Below, in pieces: positions 87-37,406 of a stretch of 37,512 nt of DNA; positions within the stretch are counted from its first letter, which is position 1, and every line of letters starts with the position of its first letter. Position numbers and translations under genes: made by a program. The stretch comes from a virus. Location of the stretch: the IMG/VR virus record IMGVR_UViG_3300030616_000054, positions 1 through 37,512 of that record, one strand, 5' to 3'. A model generated the notes under the pieces. That model searched no databases. It had not been told where the DNA came from and saw only the letters and a program-made list of their open reading frames with translations.

Positions 87-160
87 GGGCGGCTAGCTCA
101 GTTGGTTAGAGCGCATGCTCGACACGCATGAGGCCGCAGGTTCGAATCCCGCGCCGCCCA
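87..160 (+). tRNA. tRNA-Val(GAC)-like gene, attB target, hybrid of host 5' half and phage 3' half
   Basis: A 74-nt cloverleaf: acceptor GGCGGGC-type stem GGGCGGC/GCCGCCC, D stem GCTC/GAGC, anticodon stem CATGC/GCATG with loop TCGACAC, T stem GCAGG/CCCGC around TTCGAAT, discriminator A160, no encoded CCA. The predicted anticodon is GAC (Val). Position 33 is C instead of the nearly universal U. The T stem has an A51-C63 mismatch, also found in some bacterial tRNA-Met genes. The 5' half to about 118 is host sequence. The 3' half from the core onward was supplied by the phage and rebuilds a full tRNA. The original host 3' half now lies at 37365-37406. Confidence 0.85.
119..133 (+). repeat. attL core (tRNA anticodon-loop segment)
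   Basis: TCGACACGCATGAGG is identical to 37365-37379. It covers the anticodon loop and the 3' anticodon stem of the tRNA, a common crossover position for tyrosine integrases. Downstream similarity continues through the tRNA 3' half with four substitutions. Confidence 0.9.
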
Positions 161-4399: not shown

Positions 4400-4403
4400 A
4401 CAA

Positions 4404-4489
4404 GGCGGTCCCAGGGCCTTCGGGCGTCGGGGCGGTGGTTCCTGCACCTCCTACCACCTGAAGCGGAGTTCGAGCCTTCGCTGCCGCCA
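4404..4489 (+). ncRNA. tRNA-like cloverleaf element 1 (15-nt central loop)
   Basis: Four paired arms can be drawn. Closing stem: GGCGGT 4404-4409 with GCCGCC 4483-4488. D-position arm: GCC-TTCG-GGC near 4416-4425 within CCC/GGG pairing. Central stem: GGTGG 4434-4438 with CCACC 4454-4458, loop 15 nt. T-like arm: GCGGAG 4463-4468 with CTTCGC 4476-4481 around TTCGAGC. A normal anticodon loop has 7 nt. The central loop contains ACCTCCT (4446-4452), complementary to the AGGAGG that serves the next gene at 4505-4510. It lies 27 bp before the TTG-start gene. It may be a leader structure rather than a functional tRNA. Confidence 0.5.
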
Positions 4490-4516
4490 TAATTCTTTCT
4501 TGAAAGGAGGAGAGAA

Positions 4517-4675
4517 TTGCGGAGTTGGATCGTCGTCGCACATGCGGCGATAGTCACCGAGGATGCCAGCGGTGACAGGTCGTTCGATATTATATCGGAT
4601 CAGCCCGGAGGGGCGCACGGATTCGGACCGTGTGACCGGCGAGGCCATTGTTTAAGAACTGGCATTCATAATTGA
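4517..4675 (+). CDS. Small hypothetical protein with TTG start
   Basis: 52 residues from TTG 4517. AAAGGAGG at 4503-4510 is spaced six bases before the start and is one of the best ribosome-binding sites in the window. The product (SWIVVAHAAIVTEDASGDR, then FDIISDQPGGAHGFGPCD) has natural-looking composition but no known family. It lies between two tRNA-like elements. A 20-nt-loop hairpin (4679-4720) follows the stop by 3 bp. Its AGGAGG can pair with the central loop of the upstream cloverleaf, so translation may be controlled. Confidence 0.45.
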   Translation: MRSWIVVAHAAIVTEDASGDRSFDIISDQPGGAHGFGPCDRRGHCLRTGIHN

Positions 4676-4678
4676 TAC

Positions 4679-4720
4679 GCCGGGTCGCTCAATTTAACTG
4701 AGAACGTCCAGCGACCCGGC
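4679..4720 (+). repeat. Perfect 11-bp inverted repeat between small gene and tRNA-like element 2
   Basis: GCCGGGTCGCT (4679-4689) pairs with AGCGACCCGGC (4710-4720) around a 20-nt loop, 5 bp before element 2. No T-run follows, so it is not an ordinary terminator. An RNA processing or stability role is inferred. Confidence 0.7.
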
Positions 4721-4725
4721 ATTAT

Positions 4726-4843
4726 GGCACCGTGGCGCAACTGGTAGACACTAAAGATAGCTTAGTCAGTTATAAGAAATCTATCCGGCTGACCGATGAG
4801 CTTGAGGATATTTTTCATGCAGGTTCGAATCCTGCCGGTGCCA
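4726..4843 (+). ncRNA. tRNA-like cloverleaf element 2 (tRNA-Leu-like ends, 20-nt central loop)
   Basis: 118 nt. Acceptor GGCACCG/CGGTGCC pairs over 7 bp, with A4843 as discriminator. TG then GCGCAACTGGTAGAC is a D-arm of tRNA-Leu type. The T arm GCAGG-TTCGAAT-CCTGC is perfect. Between them, GATAG 4756-4760 pairs with CTATC 4781-4785 across a 20-nt loop, followed by a 33-nt variable region. An ordinary tRNA-Leu is about 85 nt. No 7-nt anticodon loop can be drawn. An inner CTTA/TAAG pairing and a competing GTCAG/CTGAC pairing are possible. It may be a degraded tRNA, a processing signal or a decoy. Confidence 0.65.
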
Positions 4844-4956
4844 AAACCCTTTTAAGGTGTGCCGGCCGAATGACCGGATACCGGGCCACCGGGGACTCAG
4901 GTGGCATCCGACCAGCCGGGAATTATCGGCCCGGCAATTATTACGAGGGGGATTTA
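4844..4956 (+). ncRNA. Structured leader upstream of the 79-residue gene
   Basis: GC-rich spacer with two perfect 6-bp hairpins: GCCACC/GGTGGC around GGGGACTCA (4895-4915) and GCCGGG/CCCGGC around AATTATCGG (about 4915-4936). Shorter CCGG pairings precede them. It ends at the GAGGGGG ribosome-binding site. No known riboswitch family is recognised. Confidence 0.35.
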
Positions 4957-5196
4957 GTGAAGCGTTATTATTTTCCAAATCGTACAGTGAAGGCCCGCGG
5001 GTATAGCCTGAAAGTGACCAGCGGGGGAACGGTCTACCATGACGACCACGGCACTTTTCGACGTCTGAATACTCTATGGCTGAAGCGATGGGGGCGGCTG
5101 AGCGTAGAGCTTCCGAATGGGAAGTGCGTTCATCTCAGACCGGAGCGAGACGGCAAGATCACGGTTATTGAAAATCTGGCTGAAGCTAAATCCTGA
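4957..5196 (+). CDS. Small hypothetical basic protein
   Basis: 79 residues from GTG 4957 with GAGGGGG upstream. The frame stays open upstream through tRNA-like element 2, but that part is RNA-gene sequence. The product (KRYYFPNRTVKARGYSLKVT, HDDHGTFRRLNTLWLKRWGRL, ELPNGKCVHLRPERDG) looks like a small all-beta, positively charged protein, possibly nucleic-acid binding. No family is recognised. It lies between tRNA-like elements 2 and 3, with 6 bp from its stop to element 3. Confidence 0.6.
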   Translation: MKRYYFPNRTVKARGYSLKVTSGGTVYHDDHGTFRRLNTLWLKRWGRLSVELPNGKCVHLRPERDGKITVIENLAEAKS

Positions 5197-5202
5197 AAAT
5201 TA

Positions 5203-5296
5203 CGGTCCGTAGCTCAGAGGTAGAGCATCATCAGCGAGTCCATCACTACGGGCGTGCATAGCGATGAGGTCGCCGGTTCAATCCCGGTCGGGCCGA
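5203..5296 (+). ncRNA. tRNA-like cloverleaf element 3 (perfect tRNA arms, 30-nt central loop)
   Basis: 94 nt. Acceptor CGGTCCG 5203-5209 with CGGGCCG 5289-5295 (one T-G wobble), then TA, D arm GCTC-AGAGGTA-GAGC, central stem TCATC 5228-5232 with GATGA 5263-5267, linker GGTC, T arm GCCGG-TTCAATC-CCGGT, discriminator A5296. All arms are canonical except the central loop, which has 30 nt instead of 7, a 23-nt excess. No CCA is encoded. The 3' end runs straight into the GGAGGG ribosome-binding site of the next gene (ATG 5307), so 3' processing would affect that gene's translation. This is the clearest of the three elements. Confidence 0.75.
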
Positions 5297-5306
5297 GGAG
5301 GGTGAG

Positions 5307-5615
5307 ATGAATATACCGACGATGATGTCCAGAGACGAGGTCGCGACGCAGCAGTATCTGCGGATGCCGACGACGTTCCCGACGCTTCGGCGCTGCCCGG
5401 AGTGCCGGCGGGAGATGGTTACCAACGGCGAGGGGCGCTTCTGGTGCCTGGCGTGCGGCTTTCACGATCGGCAGGATATCCGCCGGCTGCGCCGGCTCGC
5501 CGGACGCACAACGGGGCCTCAGGGCCTGCGCGCCTGGGACCGGGATATACACAGCCAGGCGCAAGCTGCACTGTCGAAAAAGGGGAGGGGAAATGGAGAA
5601 AATACCGATCGCTAA
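5307..5615 (+). CDS. Zinc-ribbon protein
   Basis: 102 residues with GGAGGG eight bases upstream. Residues 30-50 hold two knuckles, CPEC and CLAC, separated by 12 residues, typical of a zinc ribbon. The C-terminus is basic (RRLRRLAGR). It is probably a small nucleic-acid-binding or adaptor protein of the early programme. Its end overlaps the start of the ParB-like gene by 23 bp. The function is not recognisable. Confidence 0.65.
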   Translation: MNIPTMMSRDEVATQQYLRMPTTFPTLRRCPECRREMVTNGEGRFWCLACGFHDRQDIRRLRRLAGRTTGPQGLRAWDRDIHSQAQAALSKKGRGNGENTDR

Positions 5616-6417: not shown

Positions 6418-6611
6418 ACGCAGCACTCATCAGGGAGGAGGCCGGCGGGATCCGGAACGATTACGTCCGGTCGGTGTTGCTCGGAGCGACTAAGCGGGAG
6501 AGCCCGATCGCCCATCTGACCGAGCAGACGGTCTGGAATCTGGCGAAGAGTTATCGGGAGCTCGAGGAGCGCGTGGCTGAGCTCGAGGAGAAGGTGGAGC
6601 AGTGCAGCTAA
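6414..6611 (+). CDS. Small coiled-coil protein
   Basis: 65 residues from an ATGA overlap with the ParB-like gene. The C-terminal 25 residues (SYRELEERVAELEEKVEQ) form a short leucine-heptad coiled coil. It overlaps the helicase start by 10 bp, so the three genes are translationally linked. It may be a helicase partner or adaptor; no family is recognised. Confidence 0.6.
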   Translation: MNAALIREEAGGIRNDYVRSVLLGATKRESPIAHLTEQTVWNLAKSYRELEERVAELEEKVEQCS

Positions 6612-8113
6612 GAAAGCACCAGGCCGAGATGGTCGGTATCTGCGAGAGGATCCTCGCAGGAGAGCGGATCCGCTCGATCGTCGCGGCGGTAACGCCGGGA
6701 GGCGGAAAGTCCGCCCTTCCGGTGATCCTCGCCGAGTACCTGATCCCGGAGATTGCCGAGCGCCTGCTGTGGGTCGTGCCGCGGAACAGCCTCAAATACC
6801 AGGGCGAGGGTGAGTTCACGGATCCGCGCTGGAATGTCGTTCATCGGCTCCGGGCAGTCAACGGGAACGAGGCGGATCCGGCACGAGGGAACGGCGGATA
6901 CATCACGACATACCAGGCGATCGGGCAGAACCCGGGGATACACGCGGCCGAGCTCCGGCGCCATCGATACATTCTCTTTCTCGACGAGCCGCATCATGTC
7001 AGCGTGGAGAGCAGCTGGGAGGACGCGCTCGCGCCGCTCGTTGAGGCTGCGGGGTTGGTAGTCTTCGCCTCCGGAACGCTCGCGAGGGGAGACGGCCGGG
7101 CGATTGCGTTTATCGGCTCGGCTCCGGATCTGGAGGCTATTCGCTATGGCAGGAGCGACGCGCTGCGCGACGGCGCGGTTGCTCCTGTTCATTTCCATAC
7201 TCTTGACGGATCGGCGGAGTGGGAGAACGAGGACGGGAGCCGCGGGAGCGTAGAGAGCCTCGAGGCGGCCGGCGACTACTCGCCGCAAGCGCTCTTCACG
7301 GCGCTGCGGACCGAGTACGCGCTCGAGCTGCTGTGGATGTGCTGGCGCGACTACGAGCGGGAGACGCAGAGGAATCCGCTCGCACAGATGCTCATCGTTG
7401 CTCCCTCGATCAAGCTCGCGCGGCAGTACCGCCGAGTGCTCAGCGCGCAGATCGGGCTTGACGTCCAGATCGCAACGAGCGAGGACACGAAGGCGGCCCG
7501 GGAGACGATCGCGGCGTACCGCCGAGGTGTGTATCCGATCCTTGTTACAGTCGCTATGGCCTACGAGGGCCTCTCCGTTCCGCAGATCTCGCACATCGCC
7601 TGTCTGACGCATATCCGCTCCATCCCCTGGCTCGAGCAGTGTTTCGCACGGGCGAATCGACTCGCGCCGGGGAAGAAGGCCGGGTACGTGTACGGGCCGG
7701 CGGACCGGCGATTTCTGGAGGCGATCCGCGCGATAGAGGACGAGCAGGAGCTGGCGATCCGGGAGCGCGAGGCGCGGGGCGAGAGAGAGGAGATAGAGGA
7801 GGAGAGGACCGGAGAGGCGCGGCCCTGGATCAATCCGCTGCGCAGCGGAGTACACGGCGCTGCGGATCTCCCGCCGGCCGATGGCCAGCGGGACTTCACG
7901 CCCTCAGAGCTCGAGACGGCGCTCCGGCGGAATATCCGGTACCTGCGCCGGCACGTACTCAACGGGACGCGGCACGGGAATCACGCGGTCAAGGAGCGGA
8001 TCTGGAATGCGATCGTCCGGCGGACGGTAGATAAGAAGATCGATGAGATGAACCTCGAGGAGCTCGAGGCGGTATGGAAGGCGATGCGGGACAGGTTCGG
8101 GGGCGAGCTATGA
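6602..8113 (+). CDS. Superfamily 2 DNA/RNA helicase
   Basis: 503 residues from GTG 6602. Motif I TPGGGKS (31-37), motif II LDEPH (127-131), motif III SGT (157-159), the second RecA-like domain with IVAPSIKLARQY (265-276) and VAMAYEGLSVPQ (317-328), and motif VI QCFARANR (346-353). It is probably a DEAD/DEAH-like translocase acting in replication or recombination. The C-terminal 130 residues are charged, without a known domain. It is convergent with the RHH gene and overlaps its end by 6 bp. Confidence 0.88.
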   Translation: MQLRKHQAEMVGICERILAGERIRSIVAAVTPGGGKSALPVILAEYLIPEIAERLLWVVPRNSLKYQGEGEFTDPRWNVVHRLRAVNGNEADPARGNGGYITTYQAIGQNPGIHAAELRRHRYILFLDEPHHVSVESSWEDALAPLVEAAGLVVFASGTLARGDGRAIAFIGSAPDLEAIRYGRSDALRDGAVAPVHFHTLDGSAEWENEDGSRGSVESLEAAGDYSPQALFTALRTEYALELLWMCWRDYERETQRNPLAQMLIVAPSIKLARQYRRVLSAQIGLDVQIATSEDTKAARETIAAYRRGVYPILVTVAMAYEGLSVPQISHIACLTHIRSIPWLEQCFARANRLAPGKKAGYVYGPADRRFLEAIRAIEDEQELAIREREARGEREEIEEERTGEARPWINPLRSGVHGAADLPPADGQRDFTPSELETALRRNIRYLRRHVLNGTRHGNHAVKERIWNAIVRRTVDKKIDEMNLEELEAVWKAMRDRFGGEL

Positions 8114-8404: not shown

Positions 8405-8577
8405 ATGTTTGATACGAAAACTTATATGCGGCTGCAGAGAGCCGTGAAAGGAGCAGAATATGCCAGAGCAGGCAAACCAGAGATGCCGTATGAACTTAGG
8501 AGCTGGCGAAGGCTATCGACGCAGTGCGTAAGGTCGCCGCCGAGAAGGGCCTGGTCCTGACTGACCAGACGAAGTAA
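8405..8577 (+). pseudogene. Small gene with a -1 frameshift near 8501
   Basis: ATG 8405 follows a promoter and CGGAGGG. The first frame reads MFDTKTYMRLQRAVKGAEYA, then RAGKPEMPYELR. It then turns into unlikely sequence and stops at 8560. The -1 frame from the GAG at about 8502 reads ELAKAIDAVRKVAAEKGLVL, then TDQTK and a stop at 8577, which looks like a natural continuation. A one-base loss in an original AGGGAG, a sequencing error, or programmed -1 slippage on CTTAGGAG would all explain it. A second ATG at 8459, with AAAGGAG upstream, opens only a 21-codon frame. The product is unknown. Confidence 0.5.
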
Positions 8578-9652: not shown

Positions 9653-12600
9653 GGATTTTACATCTTTCGGATTTACATCTCCGCGCCTCGCGTGGAGAGG
9701 AGAGCCTCCGGGCTCTCGATGCGATCGAGCAGATCGCCGTAGAGCAGGACGTCGACCTGATCGCGATCGCCGGCGATACCTGGGACGGAGCGGTACAGAA
9801 TACCGCCGGCGCGATGCTCTCGACGTTCGTCGAGCGGATCCGGCTCCTGGCGAATATCGCCCCAGTGGTGATGATCTACGGGACGCCGAGCCACGACACG
9901 GCTGGCAGTCTTGAGATCTTCGAGCAGGTAGATAGCAGGCACGGGATCACGATCCTTCGGCCGGGGAAGGGATACTTTTTCAACGAGAAAACGAAAACAC
10001 AGACCGTATTCGATGAGCCGGAGGTTGCAGGCATCAAGGACAGCCTTCTGATCTTCGGTGTTCCCGAGCCATCGAAGAAATGGATCGCGGGACTGGCCGG
10101 AGATAAAGAGACCGCCGAGGCCGGCGGTCGTCAGGCGCTGCGGAATCTCTTTCTCGGGTTGGCAGCCAAGAGGAAAGAACACGCAGATCTGCCCTGTCTC
10201 CTACTGTATCACGGGGAGATCGCCGGCGCAACCACCGCGACCGGATATCAGAGCGAGGCGAATACGAGCCTCGTCGTCACACGCGAGGACCTCGCGGCGG
10301 TAGGGGCCGACTATGTGGCCTGCGGACATATCCACGAGCCGCAGGAAGTCGGCCCGGGGATCTTCTACGCCGGTAGCGCCTTCCCGCAAAACTGGGGAGA
10401 GACGCACCAGGCGGGCGTGAATATCGTCGAAATTCGGAAGAATAATGCAGGGCCGGATAGCGGCTGGGGGGGCAATATGTATGTGACGACGATTGCACGC
10501 ATCGATCTCCCGTTCCCGCAGCGGGTGAAGCTCACAACTACCTGGCCCGAGGGGCCTGACGTGTTCACCGAACCCGCCGATATCGCGGAGAAGCTGGTAT
10601 GGATCGAGGCGACTGTATCGCAGGATACCGCGGCGGCGTTCGATCAGGACACCTCCCTCGAGAGGCTCCTGTCCCTTGGAGCCCTCGAGGGCTCCCGCGT
10701 CACCCTGAACGTACTCCCGACCGAGACGGTCCGCGCCGAGGAGATCGCGGAGGCGGCGAGCCTCCGGAAGAAGGTCTCTATCTGGGCCGAGAGCTCGGGC
10801 GAAGAGATCGCCGAGTCGGTACTCAATCGGGCGGACGTGCTCGAGGAGGAGGCCTGCGCCGCCGGCGTAACCGGGCAGGGTTCGCATATCCGCATCGACC
10901 GGCTGATTCTGCGGGGATCGGTCGGGATCTGGCGCGGGACCGGACTCGATACGATCGAGATCGACTTCGCTGATTACGAGCACGGACTCATCGCAATGAT
11001 CGGATCGAACGGAAAAGGAAAAACGACGCTGTTAGAGAATATGCACCCCTGGCCGCAGATGCTCACCCGCGAGGGAAAGCTCCAGGACCATTTCCGCCTG
11101 CGCGATTCATACCGGGATCTGTACTTCACCGACGAACGCGGCGGTGTACGCTACCGCGCGCTCATGCAGATCGACGGGCAGAACAAGAGTGGATCCATCG
11201 ACTACTACCTCTATCGCTGGGAGTACGGCCTGGACGGGGAGAGCTGGCAGCCTCTGGCGGATATCAACGGCCGGCGGGAGCCTTATGTCGAGGCGATCGA
11301 GGGGCTCTACGGATCCCTCGCCCTGTACCTCCGCAGCGCCTTCATCAGCCAGCGGCCGACGAAGGGGAACCCCGACCTGGCCGACGCGACGAAGGGAGAG
11401 CGGAAGGCGCTCTTCCGCGAGCTCGCCGGTCTGGACTACCTGCAGGGGTACGCCGACGCGGCGAAGGAGAAGGCGAAAGCGCTCGAGAGCGAGATCGCTA
11501 CGGATACTGGACGATGTCAGGCGCTGGAGAGCCTGGTCGAGGAGATCCCCGAGATCGAGGGACGTATCACCACAGGCCGCGCAGCGGTGAAAGATATCGA
11601 CGCTGTGATCGCCGAGTGCAGCGATAGCCTGTCCGTACTGCAGGGAGACCTGGAGGCGGCAGGGAAGCGGCTCGAGAAGGCCCGGGAGACGGAGCGCAAG
11701 GTCTCCGAGATCGGCTCCTCGCTTGCACGCCTCAGCGGAGAAGCGCGGGAGCTCGAGAGGAGCGCTGAGAGTTACCGGGCGGCGCTTGATAAGCGAGAGG
11801 CAGCCCGGCAGGCAATCGGAGAGTACGAGCAACTCACCGCCGAGCGGGCAGAGCTGCAGAAGCAGTATCAGAAGCATCTCGAGGAGGAGAAGCGGATCCT
11901 CGCGGACTGGCACGCTGCGAAGGACGAGAAGCAGGCCGAGCGGGAGAAGTACCGCGAGGGGATCGCTGGCAGCCAGAGCGAGGTGAACCAGCTCAAGCGG
12001 GAGGAAGCGGCAACCGAAACGATGATCACCAGCCTCGCCGGAGAGCTCATGGTGCCGATCAGCGAGACCTGCCCGACCTGTGGGCAAAGCTGGCCGGCAG
12101 AGCGGAAAGAGCAGTACCTGGGCGAGCGGGCCGAGAAAGAGGGAAGGCTCGCAGAGTTGCAGAGGCACGCCCGGGAGCTGGCCGATAAAATCATGGGCCT
12201 CGAGGCAGTTATCAGTGCCAACACCGACGCCATGAACGCGATCGGAGACCCGGAGAAGCCGGAGGTCCCGGAGTGGGACGAGGCGCCGCTGCGGAAAATA
12301 GAGACCGCACTCGAGTGGATCGAGATCGAGGCAGAGCGGGAGATCCTACAACGCGCCGACATGGCCGAGGCGAAACTCGAGGGAATAGCCGAACGGGTCT
12401 CTGCGATCGAGGCCGAGATCAAACGACTCGATACGGAGCAGTCCGAGTGGAAAGCGAAAGCGGATCCGGAGGCCGAGAGAATAGAGCGCGGAGCGAGGAT
12501 CGCGCTGGAGGGGATGCAGAGTAAGCTCGCCGGCGAACGGGAGCGGAAGGCAACCTACGCCGCACGGCTCGAGGAGCTCGAGGGGCAGCTCGCAGGGCTG

Positions 12601-16437: not shown

Positions 16438-17418
16438 ATGGGACGACAACCGAAATATGATGCTGATTATTTTCCGTTCTACGCGAAGGACGGGCGGACG
16501 CTCTTCATCCTGCAGCAGCGTTACGGCCTGGAGGGTATCGGGTTCTTCACGAACCTGATGCGCCTTCTGACGTTGACGCCGAACCATCATCTCTGCATTC
16601 AGGAGGAAGCTGATCGGCTGTATTTTTTCTCAAAAATTGGCATAGATGAGGATCGCGGAATGGAGATGATAGATCTACTGGTAAAGACCGGAAAGATACA
16701 TCACGACTTGTGGATAACTCACAGAGTGATCGTATCTGAAGATCACCTCAATAGCCTAAAACCGCTGTATGAACGGCGGAAACAGGAGATTATAACCATC
16801 GAAGAAATTGAAAATACCTACATTAATCGAATTAATGTAGACGAAAAAGGGATAAATGTAGACATAAACCCGATAAATGACAGCAGAAACACACAAAGCA
16901 AAGCAAAGCAAAGTAAAGTAAAGCAAAGCAAAGCAGAGGAAACTACATCTAAGCCTGTGGATAACTCTCCGCAGTCGGCCGCGCATGTCGACCCGAGCGA
17001 TGTCGTGGCTGCTGCTGCCGCCTTTAATCTGCAGCTGCAAGGAGGGGAGGCGAGGACGGCAGCCGAACGGCTCGAAGCACGGGGACTCGGAGCCGACTTT
17101 ATCGCCTGGGTCGGGGAGGAGCTGCGCGCGGATCGGAAGATCAAGAACCCCGCCGGCTTCCTGCGCCGCATGCTCGCCGACCTGGACGGGTACGGGGACT
17201 ATCTCGCGAGGTATCGAGAGCGGACCAGGGCCTCACCGGATCCGGGGAGAGCGAAAACACCTGCGGATAGCTGCCCCGACTGCGGGGCGAAGATTCGTAT
17301 CATCGGCGACGAGGCGTGGTGCAGCGAGTGCCGGCAGTTGCTGTGGGTATACGATAGCGATTTCAATATCTGGAGCGCGCCGCCGGAGAGAAAGGCGGAG
17401 GACGCTGCAGGCTGGTAA
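16438..17418 (+). CDS. DUF4373-type replication initiation protein
   Basis: 326 residues. The N-terminal 100 (KYDADYFPFYAKDGRTLFIL, RYGLEGIGFFTNLMRLLTL) match the Lin1244/Lin1753-like DUF4373 domain found in phage replisome organisers. Residues 120-170 are low complexity and encoded by AT-rich DNA with eight AAAGC/AAAGT units (16895-16934), a likely origin inside the gene, as in several phages. A C-terminal zinc ribbon (CPDC and CSEC) follows a domain resembling DnaD/replication-protein C-termini. No helicase loader was identified separately. The ribosome-binding site is weak. Confidence 0.78.
   Translation: MGRQPKYDADYFPFYAKDGRTLFILQQRYGLEGIGFFTNLMRLLTLTPNHHLCIQEEADRLYFFSKIGIDEDRGMEMIDLLVKTGKIHHDLWITHRVIVSEDHLNSLKPLYERRKQEIITIEEIENTYINRINVDEKGINVDINPINDSRNTQSKAKQSKVKQSKAEETTSKPVDNSPQSAAHVDPSDVVAAAAAFNLQLQGGEARTAAERLEARGLGADFIAWVGEELRADRKIKNPAGFLRRMLADLDGYGDYLARYRERTRASPDPGRAKTPADSCPDCGAKIRIIGDEAWCSECRQLLWVYDSDFNIWSAPPERKAEDAAGW
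16820..16934 (+). other. Candidate replication origin inside the replication gene
   Basis: AT-rich patch in a GC-rich gene. AATGTAGAC occurs twice (16834-16842, 16855-16863), with ATTAAT twice just upstream, followed by eight pentamer units AAAGC/AAAGT in tandem (16895-16934). Iterons plus an AT-rich stretch within the initiator gene fit an origin. Function is inferred. Confidence 0.5.
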
Positions 17419-37192: not shown

Positions 37193-37364
37193 ATGTAAAA
37201 AAAGAAGATTATTTTCGAGTATTTGTATATACCTATTTCCCGCCCTGGGGCGTGTGTACGAACGTGTGTATCTTTGCATCCAGAAATGCCCTTTTTTACC
37301 ATGCCGAGCATAGAATAATAGAGATATTAGAGGGTAAAAATGGAGATTTGAGCCCTCCCCATTT
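37193..37364. other. attR arm region
   Basis: AT-rich stretch without a credible gene. It holds the right-hand arm-type repeats (37251-37271), CGTGTGTAC and CGTGTGTAT 12 bp apart, counterparts of those at 227-246. Confidence 0.5.
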
Positions 37365-37406
37365 TCGACACGCATGAGGTCACAGGTTCGAATCCCGTGT
37401 CGCCCA
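37365..37406 (+). repeat. attR: core plus displaced 3' half of the host tRNA
   Basis: Core TCGACACGCATGAGG (37365-37379), then a tRNA 3' half ending in discriminator A37406. Joined to the host 5' half at 87-118 it forms the uninterrupted tRNA. It differs from the phage copy at four positions, including a compensated T-stem pair. Confidence 0.9.

What the first reader, a model, noticed from the sequence alone, without database searches (positions are those of the whole stretch)
4404..5296. Three phage tRNA-like cloverleaves with enlarged anticodon-position loops
Seen: three cloverleaves within 900 bp with tRNA-type acceptor and T arms (TTCGAGC, TTCGAAT, TTCAATC). Their central loops are 15, 20 and 30 nt instead of 7. 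Element 3 (5203-5296) is otherwise a textbook tRNA. Known: bacterial tRNA genes rarely vary in anticodon-loop length, and archaeal-type small introns are not known in phages. Inference: they could be precursors with small introns, decoys for anticodon nucleases, RNase P/Z signals, or tRNA decay products. Three in a row with the same kind of deviation argues against random decay.
Basis: partly seen in the sequence, partly recalled or inferred. Interest (0 to 1): 0.85.

Follow-up and report, generated by a model that had tools for sequence, protein, structure and literature searches.

The report
Phage tRNA-like genes without usable anticodons
A spirochaete-type prophage carries two clear and one probable tRNA-shaped RNA genes whose anticodon end has been rebuilt so that it can no longer read codons; following them up exposed a small, conserved intron-like insert that sits unrecognised in tRNA genes of many other phages, including cultured ones.

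Summary
Window: a 37.2-kb prophage in a tRNA-Val gene, with relatives in Spirochaetales. E2 (4726-4843) and E3 (5203-5296) are truly tRNA-derived: acceptor plus T arm are found 2 times against 0.005 in shuffles, and a tRNA-type covariance model gives E3 7e-9 and E2 1.5e-5. E1 (4404-4489) is weaker: good T arm, 6-bp acceptor, no D-loop GG. The drawn loops are only partly right: E2's 20-nt hairpin has pairing probability 0.00, and E3's '30-nt loop' holds a strong inner helix. No single excision gives E2 or E3 a normal anticodon arm, so simple intron precursors are not supported. Relatives carry similar rebuilt tRNA-like genes in the same region. Best reading: non-decoding tRNA-like RNAs (function inferred); decay is the main rival.

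By-product, not E1-E3: a conserved 40-57-nt insert ('CAGCA element') in the anticodon stem of tRNA genes in many viral contigs and in cultured jumbo phages (Serratia BF, Cronobacter GAP32, Erwinia SNUABM). Its hairpin covaries, and removing it restores canonical tRNAs (45 of 84 candidates against 0.6% of shuffles). The only phage tRNA introns I found reported, in Lak megaphages (2019), lack it.

The parts
4404..4489 (+). E1, probable tRNA-like element: acceptor GGCGGT/GCCGCC, hairpin GGTGG(4434-4438)/CCACC(4454-4458) with 15-nt loop, T arm CGGAG-TTCGAGC-CTTCG (4464-4480); D arm without GG
   Evidence: not found by model R1
4726..4843 (+). E2, tRNA-derived element, Leu-like body: acceptor GGCACCG/CGGTGCC, D arm GCGCAACTGGTAGACAC, T arm GCAGG-TTCGAAT-CCTGC (4819-4835), discriminator A; rebuilt centre
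5203..5296 (+). E3, tRNA-derived element: acceptor 5203-5209/5289-5295, D arm 5212-5226, closing stem 5228-5232/5263-5267, 30-nt centre 5233-5262 with inner helix, T arm 5272-5288, discriminator A 5296
4400..4960 (+). structured stretch, largely non-coding, that holds E1 and E2; folds better than shuffles (z -3.9)
5297..5309 (+). Shine-Dalgarno GGAGG and ATG start of the next gene, directly after E3
87..160 (+). tRNA-Val(GAC) at the left prophage end (attL side)
37360..37406 (+). repeat of the 3' half of tRNA-Val, right prophage end (attR)

Best explanation
E2 and E3 (and probably E1) are tRNA-derived, non-decoding RNA genes of a temperate phage. Shown: the acceptor-T half (and in E3 the D arm with the elbow contacts) is intact; the anticodon domain is replaced by other hairpins; it is not a canonical arm and no single excision makes it one; related phages have different versions in the same region. 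Inferred: they are co-transcribed with the early genes, recognised by RNase P and RNase Z at the acceptor/T stack, given CCA, and released as stable tRNA-like RNAs whose task does not need codon reading (substrate, mimic or sink for tRNA-binding proteins). Which protein they act on is not known.
For: tRNA origin well beyond chance. Perfect acceptor and T stems in E2 and E3 while the centre is non-canonical. The E3 counterpart in L321 keeps acceptor, D and T pairing with different bases and also has no usable anticodon arm. 11 acceptor+T hits in relatives, all on the sense strand, against 0.1 expected; several have rebuilt centres. Elements that cannot be trimmed to a canonical tRNA are common in other viral contigs: 38 of 50 in the sample without the CAGCA motif, and in a stricter set of 33 a 5-bp closing stem is enriched, 6 against 0.8.
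Against: No expression data. Only one counterpart of E3 and none of E2 or E1 could be aligned, so selection on the arms is not measured. E1 lacks the D-loop GG. The number and shape of elements differ between relatives, which fits decay as well.
Confidence: 0.45

Rival explanations
1. Decaying phage tRNA genes: once normal tRNAs, now gathering insertions in the least constrained arm under relaxed selection.
For: Variable number and form in relatives, next to normal tRNA genes; E1 and L325 2360-2465 have lost the D arm too.
Against: All 7 acceptor and 5 T-stem pairs of E2 and E3 are intact. The same kind of rebuilt centre recurs in unrelated phages with the closing stem kept more often than by chance.
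Confidence: 0.3
2. Precursors of functional tRNAs with small introns that are removed in a non-standard way (two excisions, or an unusual mature anticodon arm).
For: Intron-like inserts are common in phage tRNA genes; L323 6709-6786 becomes a canonical tRNA-Tyr(GTA) by losing 6 nt; the L321 counterpart of E3 contains ACAGCAA.
Against: No single excision works for E2, E3 or the L321 counterpart; the CAGCA-element model R2 does not match the window or L321.
Confidence: 0.13
3. Cis-acting punctuation: the tRNA-like folds only mark RNase P and RNase Z cuts that separate early mRNAs; the excised RNA has no function.
For: E1 starts 4 nt after a stop codon; E3 fits between two genes and ends at the next Shine-Dalgarno, and its L321 counterpart ends a few nt before one. 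RNase P and Z need mainly the acceptor/T stack (established knowledge).
Against: E2 lies in a 470-nt stretch without a clear gene, not at a gene junction. Normal phage tRNAs are packed between genes in the same way.
Confidence: 0.1

Closest known systems
Introns in tRNA genes of Prevotella Lak megaphages (Devoto et al. 2019, PMC6784885)
   Same: phage tRNA genes with extra sequence in the anticodon region; the paper calls the introns enigmatic
   Different: Lak introns fetched here are much longer, at least one holds a tRNA-like fold (reported in the paper), and the Lak-A1 Thr gene reduces to the canonical Lak-C1 gene; E2 and E3 do not reduce to a canonical tRNA
CAGCA element
   Same: tRNA genes of phages with an enlarged anticodon region that ARAGORN misses; full acceptor, D and T arms
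   Different: has a conserved covarying hairpin plus ACAGCA motif and a canonical anticodon arm once removed; E1-E3 have neither
tmRNA
   Same: acceptor and T arm kept while the anticodon region is replaced
   Different: no Rfam match; no tag ORF sought; from established knowledge only
Bacterial Y RNAs (YrlA) and other tRNA mimics
   Same: non-decoding RNA that looks like tRNA to tRNA-processing enzymes (established knowledge)
   Different: YrlA is joined to a Ro-binding stem in another arrangement; no Ro gene or Y RNA sought here; a lead only
Stable RNAs of unknown function in the phage T4 tRNA cluster; non-proteinogenic tRNA-Gly of staphylococci
   Same: stable RNA of unknown use in a phage tRNA cluster; tRNAs that serve outside translation (from memory)
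   Different: no sequence relation tested; leads only

Membership tests
canonical bacterial tRNA | 7-bp acceptor, 5-bp T stem with TTCRANY loop | tested here: met
   E2 and E3 met; E1 only 6 bp and shifted
canonical bacterial tRNA | D arm with G18G19 and elbow contacts | tested here: inconclusive
   E3 met; E2 has GG but a mismatch in the D stem; E1 not met
canonical bacterial tRNA | 5-bp anticodon stem, 7-nt loop with U33 | tested here: not met
   none of the three as encoded
tRNA with a single intron (archaeal, Lak or other type) | canonical anticodon arm after one excision | tested here: not met
   E2 and E3: none found; E1 formally one with 8 nt
archaeal BHB intron | two 3-nt bulges around a 4-bp helix at the exon junctions | tested here: not met
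   judged by eye on the minimum-energy folds
group I or II intron | conserved catalytic core | tested here: not met
   inserts of tens of nt; no such Rfam match at E up to 5
CAGCA element | hairpin plus ACNGCA insert in the anticodon stem | tested here: not met
   R2 gives no hit in the window or L321 at E up to 5
tmRNA | tmRNA covariance model | tested here: not met
   no match; ARAGORN finds none
anticodon-nuclease decoy | binds or is cut by the nuclease | not testable with these tools
   needs biochemistry; loss of a normal anticodon loop makes it less likely (inference)
decayed tRNA pseudogene | stems lose pairing, no RNA product | tested here: inconclusive
   stems intact in E2 and E3; no RNA data

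The most novel reading that the evidence does not exclude
E1-E3 are examples of a widespread, undescribed class of phage non-coding RNAs: tRNA bodies kept for processing and protein recognition, with the anticodon domain replaced by lineage-specific structures and acting independently of codon reading. They exist alongside a second phenomenon for which I found no description, a 40-57-nt conserved intron-like element in phage tRNA genes.
Probability: 0.35. Interest if true: 0.82.

Novelty: new variant of a known kind. Interest (0 to 1): 0.62.

Why it matters
If the tRNA-like genes are expressed, phages use tRNA bodies for something other than translation, which bears on the old question of why phages carry tRNAs. 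The by-product is sharper: tiny inserts that split the anticodon stem of otherwise canonical tRNAs, in phages that can be grown on enterobacterial hosts, imply a very small self-splicing RNA, an unknown splicing route in bacteria, or translation with a five-armed tRNA. These can be told apart by RT-PCR and an in vitro splicing test.

Tried and rejected
Chance: rejected. Known RNA families: none. Membership in the CAGCA-element class: rejected by model R2, although the 7-mer ACAGCAA in L321's counterpart first suggested it. Model R1 scores any tRNA, so its hits were used only as evidence of tRNA origin. Phage-encoded ligases as the splicing route: RtcB in 4 and T4-type Rnl1 in 2 of 30 records with such genes, many of them possibly fragments, so not general. 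Close relatives by ParB or terminase in viral contigs: none useful; portal hits at about 40% (Sinorhizobium and Microcystis phages) show no annotated tRNA genes. A search for intron-free alleles of the same CAGCA tRNA found only similar normal tRNAs (77-93% identical in the listed best hits), not true alleles. A scan with an E3-like D arm gave mostly ordinary tRNAs plus L362, L364, L365 and L367. Papers: no description of the CAGCA element found; the library holds open-access papers only.

Full report
What the window is. The record is a virus record of 37,512 bases. [quoted passage not shown] Its terminase, portal and capsid genes have PHROG matches of the tailed-phage kind. The helicase at 6602-8110 has its best matches in Spirochaetales and Treponema MAGs and in viral contigs L321-L340, which points to a spirochaete host (inference).

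Checking the observation. Exactly three T arms with a TTCRANY loop exist in the window, on one strand and within about 810 nt, against 0.1 expected in shuffles. E2 and E3 also have perfect 7-bp acceptors at the right place; 0.005 such pairs are expected. A covariance model of tRNA genes with enlarged centres (R1, built later from other phages) finds E3 at 44.8 bits and E2 at 30.7 bits, second and third only to tRNA-Val, and not E1. E1 has a shifted 6-bp acceptor and a D-arm hairpin without GG; it is probable because of its place next to E2, not by itself. Partition-function folding contradicts the drawn E2 hairpin (0.00) and shows that E3's 30-nt loop contains a 4-bp helix with probability 0.98. 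The stretch 4400-4960 is more structured than shuffles (z -3.9).

Are they intron-bearing tRNAs? I tried every single excision that would leave a 5-bp stem and 7-nt loop with U33 and a purine at 37. E2, E3 and E3's counterpart in L321 give none, also with relaxed variable-loop and linker lengths. E1 formally can (an 8-nt excision) but does not have a full tRNA body. So by standard tRNA rules the products of E2 and E3 could not decode.

Relatives. In L321, the nearest relative (helicase 59% identical), a 116-nt element lies just upstream of the helicase with the same acceptor type (C1-G72, A73), intact D and T arms, a 67-nt centre and again no canonical arm; a Shine-Dalgarno-like AAGGAGG follows within about 10 nt. 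The acceptor and T stems of E3 and this element pair through partly different bases. L323, L325, L335, L336, L339 and L340 have further odd tRNA-likes, and normal-looking tRNAs occur in L321, L241, L327, L331 and L332. Over these relatives there are 11 acceptor+T hits, all on the sense strand, against 0.1 expected. In L367, found by its D-arm sequence and not by kinship, two elements carry hairpins inserted in the D loop; L323 at about 7127 appears to have an enlarged T loop.

A wider search. Two kinds of enlarged gene emerge. Of 84 candidates 45 give a canonical anticodon arm when the insert is removed, against 0.6% of shuffled centres. On 22 aligned genes 96% of cells pair, 23 of 26 pairs show double changes, and all six hairpin pairs in the insert covary. 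ARAGORN recognises 39 of 39 trimmed genes, with ordinary isotypes, and none of the untrimmed ones; those 39 were selected for having a canonical arm, so the independent evidence is 45/84 against 0.6% and the covariation. Trimmed genes align with normal phage tRNAs, the best at 93%.

The element is in cultured jumbo phages. Model matches are in Serratia phage BF, Erwinia phage pEa_SNUABM_19, Pectobacterium phage CBB, Cronobacter phage GAP32, Xanthomonas phage XbC2 and Vibrio phage D479, and further Erwinia SNUABM phages hold the identical or an 83% identical Lys gene. There it is annotated as tRNA-Lys, as tRNA-Phe, as tRNA-OTHER or as tRNA-Pseudo, or not at all. Only 1 of 296 genomes of the spirochaete phylum has a match, on a small contig with several such genes. 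The second kind comprises elements that, like E3, cannot be trimmed to a canonical tRNA: 38 of 50 in the sample without the motif; in a stricter set of 33, a 5-bp closing stem is enriched, 6 against 0.8. E3 belongs with these. A model of the CAGCA insert alone (R2) does not match the window.

Mechanism. Most likely E1-E3 are tRNA bodies retained for processing and recognition, with a centre no longer used for decoding (0.45). E2 resembles tRNA-Leu, whose synthetase does not read the anticodon in E. coli, so charging is conceivable (established knowledge plus inference, untested). Decay (0.3) is the main rival and cannot be excluded without more orthologues or RNA data.

Known or new. I found one report of phage tRNA introns in the library searched, in Lak megaphages (PMC6784885). 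I fetched the enlarged Lak genes: the inserts in the Thr gene and others are longer, and none of the ones printed carries the CAGCA element; the insert model R2 found nothing in the 50-kb Lak stretches searched. I found no paper on the CAGCA element or on non-decoding phage tRNA-likes, but the library is open access only. For E1-E3 the fair label is a new variant of a known kind; the CAGCA element deserves its own study.

Noticed in passing
e.g. L204:1607-1722, L146:3880-4000, L171:474-588, L351:12009-12131 (Serratia phage BF), L356:3021-3147 (GAP32): CAGCA element: 40-57-nt conserved insert in the anticodon stem of phage tRNA genes; covarying hairpin plus ACAGCA; removal restores canonical tRNAs of many isotypes.
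   Followed up: yes
L351:10360-10476 and 10806-10932; L353:8411-8524; L357:1321-1434: Further CAGCA-type genes in cultured jumbo phages; the two in Serratia phage BF are unannotated, the one in CBB is called tRNA-OTHER; the Glu(UUC) version has ACGGCA.
   Followed up: partly
L367:6659-6766 and 8408-8507; L323:7127-7275: tRNA-like genes with a hairpin inserted in the D loop (L367) or an enlarged T loop (L323), so other loops than the anticodon loop can also be enlarged.
   Followed up: partly
L004, L059, L100 (CTCAWGGTRAAGGRCCWAAA) and L098, L104 (GCGGA-AAA-hairpin-TACCTAA-TCCGC): Two more recurrent designs of enlarged anticodon domain in viral tRNA-like genes.
   Followed up: no
L042, L050, L057, L058, L088, L112, L119 and others: Viral tRNAs with a CTTATAC anticodon loop (UAU) and a long class II-like variable arm with an AGATTAG-type loop.
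   Followed up: no
L404 (Lak-A1 492338-492523) versus L407 (Lak-C1 456124-456195): Lak tRNA-Thr(TGT) with and without an insert of about 114 nt in the anticodon loop, as reported in PMC6784885.
   Followed up: yes
L409 (contig of 13 kb in one genome of the spirochaete phylum): Cluster of tRNA genes with ACAGCA inserts, one of them in a Tyr-like gene with a long variable arm.
   Followed up: partly
window 16884-16953: Run of 5-bp CAAAG-type repeats inside the replication-initiator-like gene.
   Followed up: no
window 4528-4720 and 4845-4945: Further strong hairpins between and after E1 and E2, including a 10-bp or longer GC-rich stem at about 4680-4722; unexplained structured stretch.
   Followed up: no
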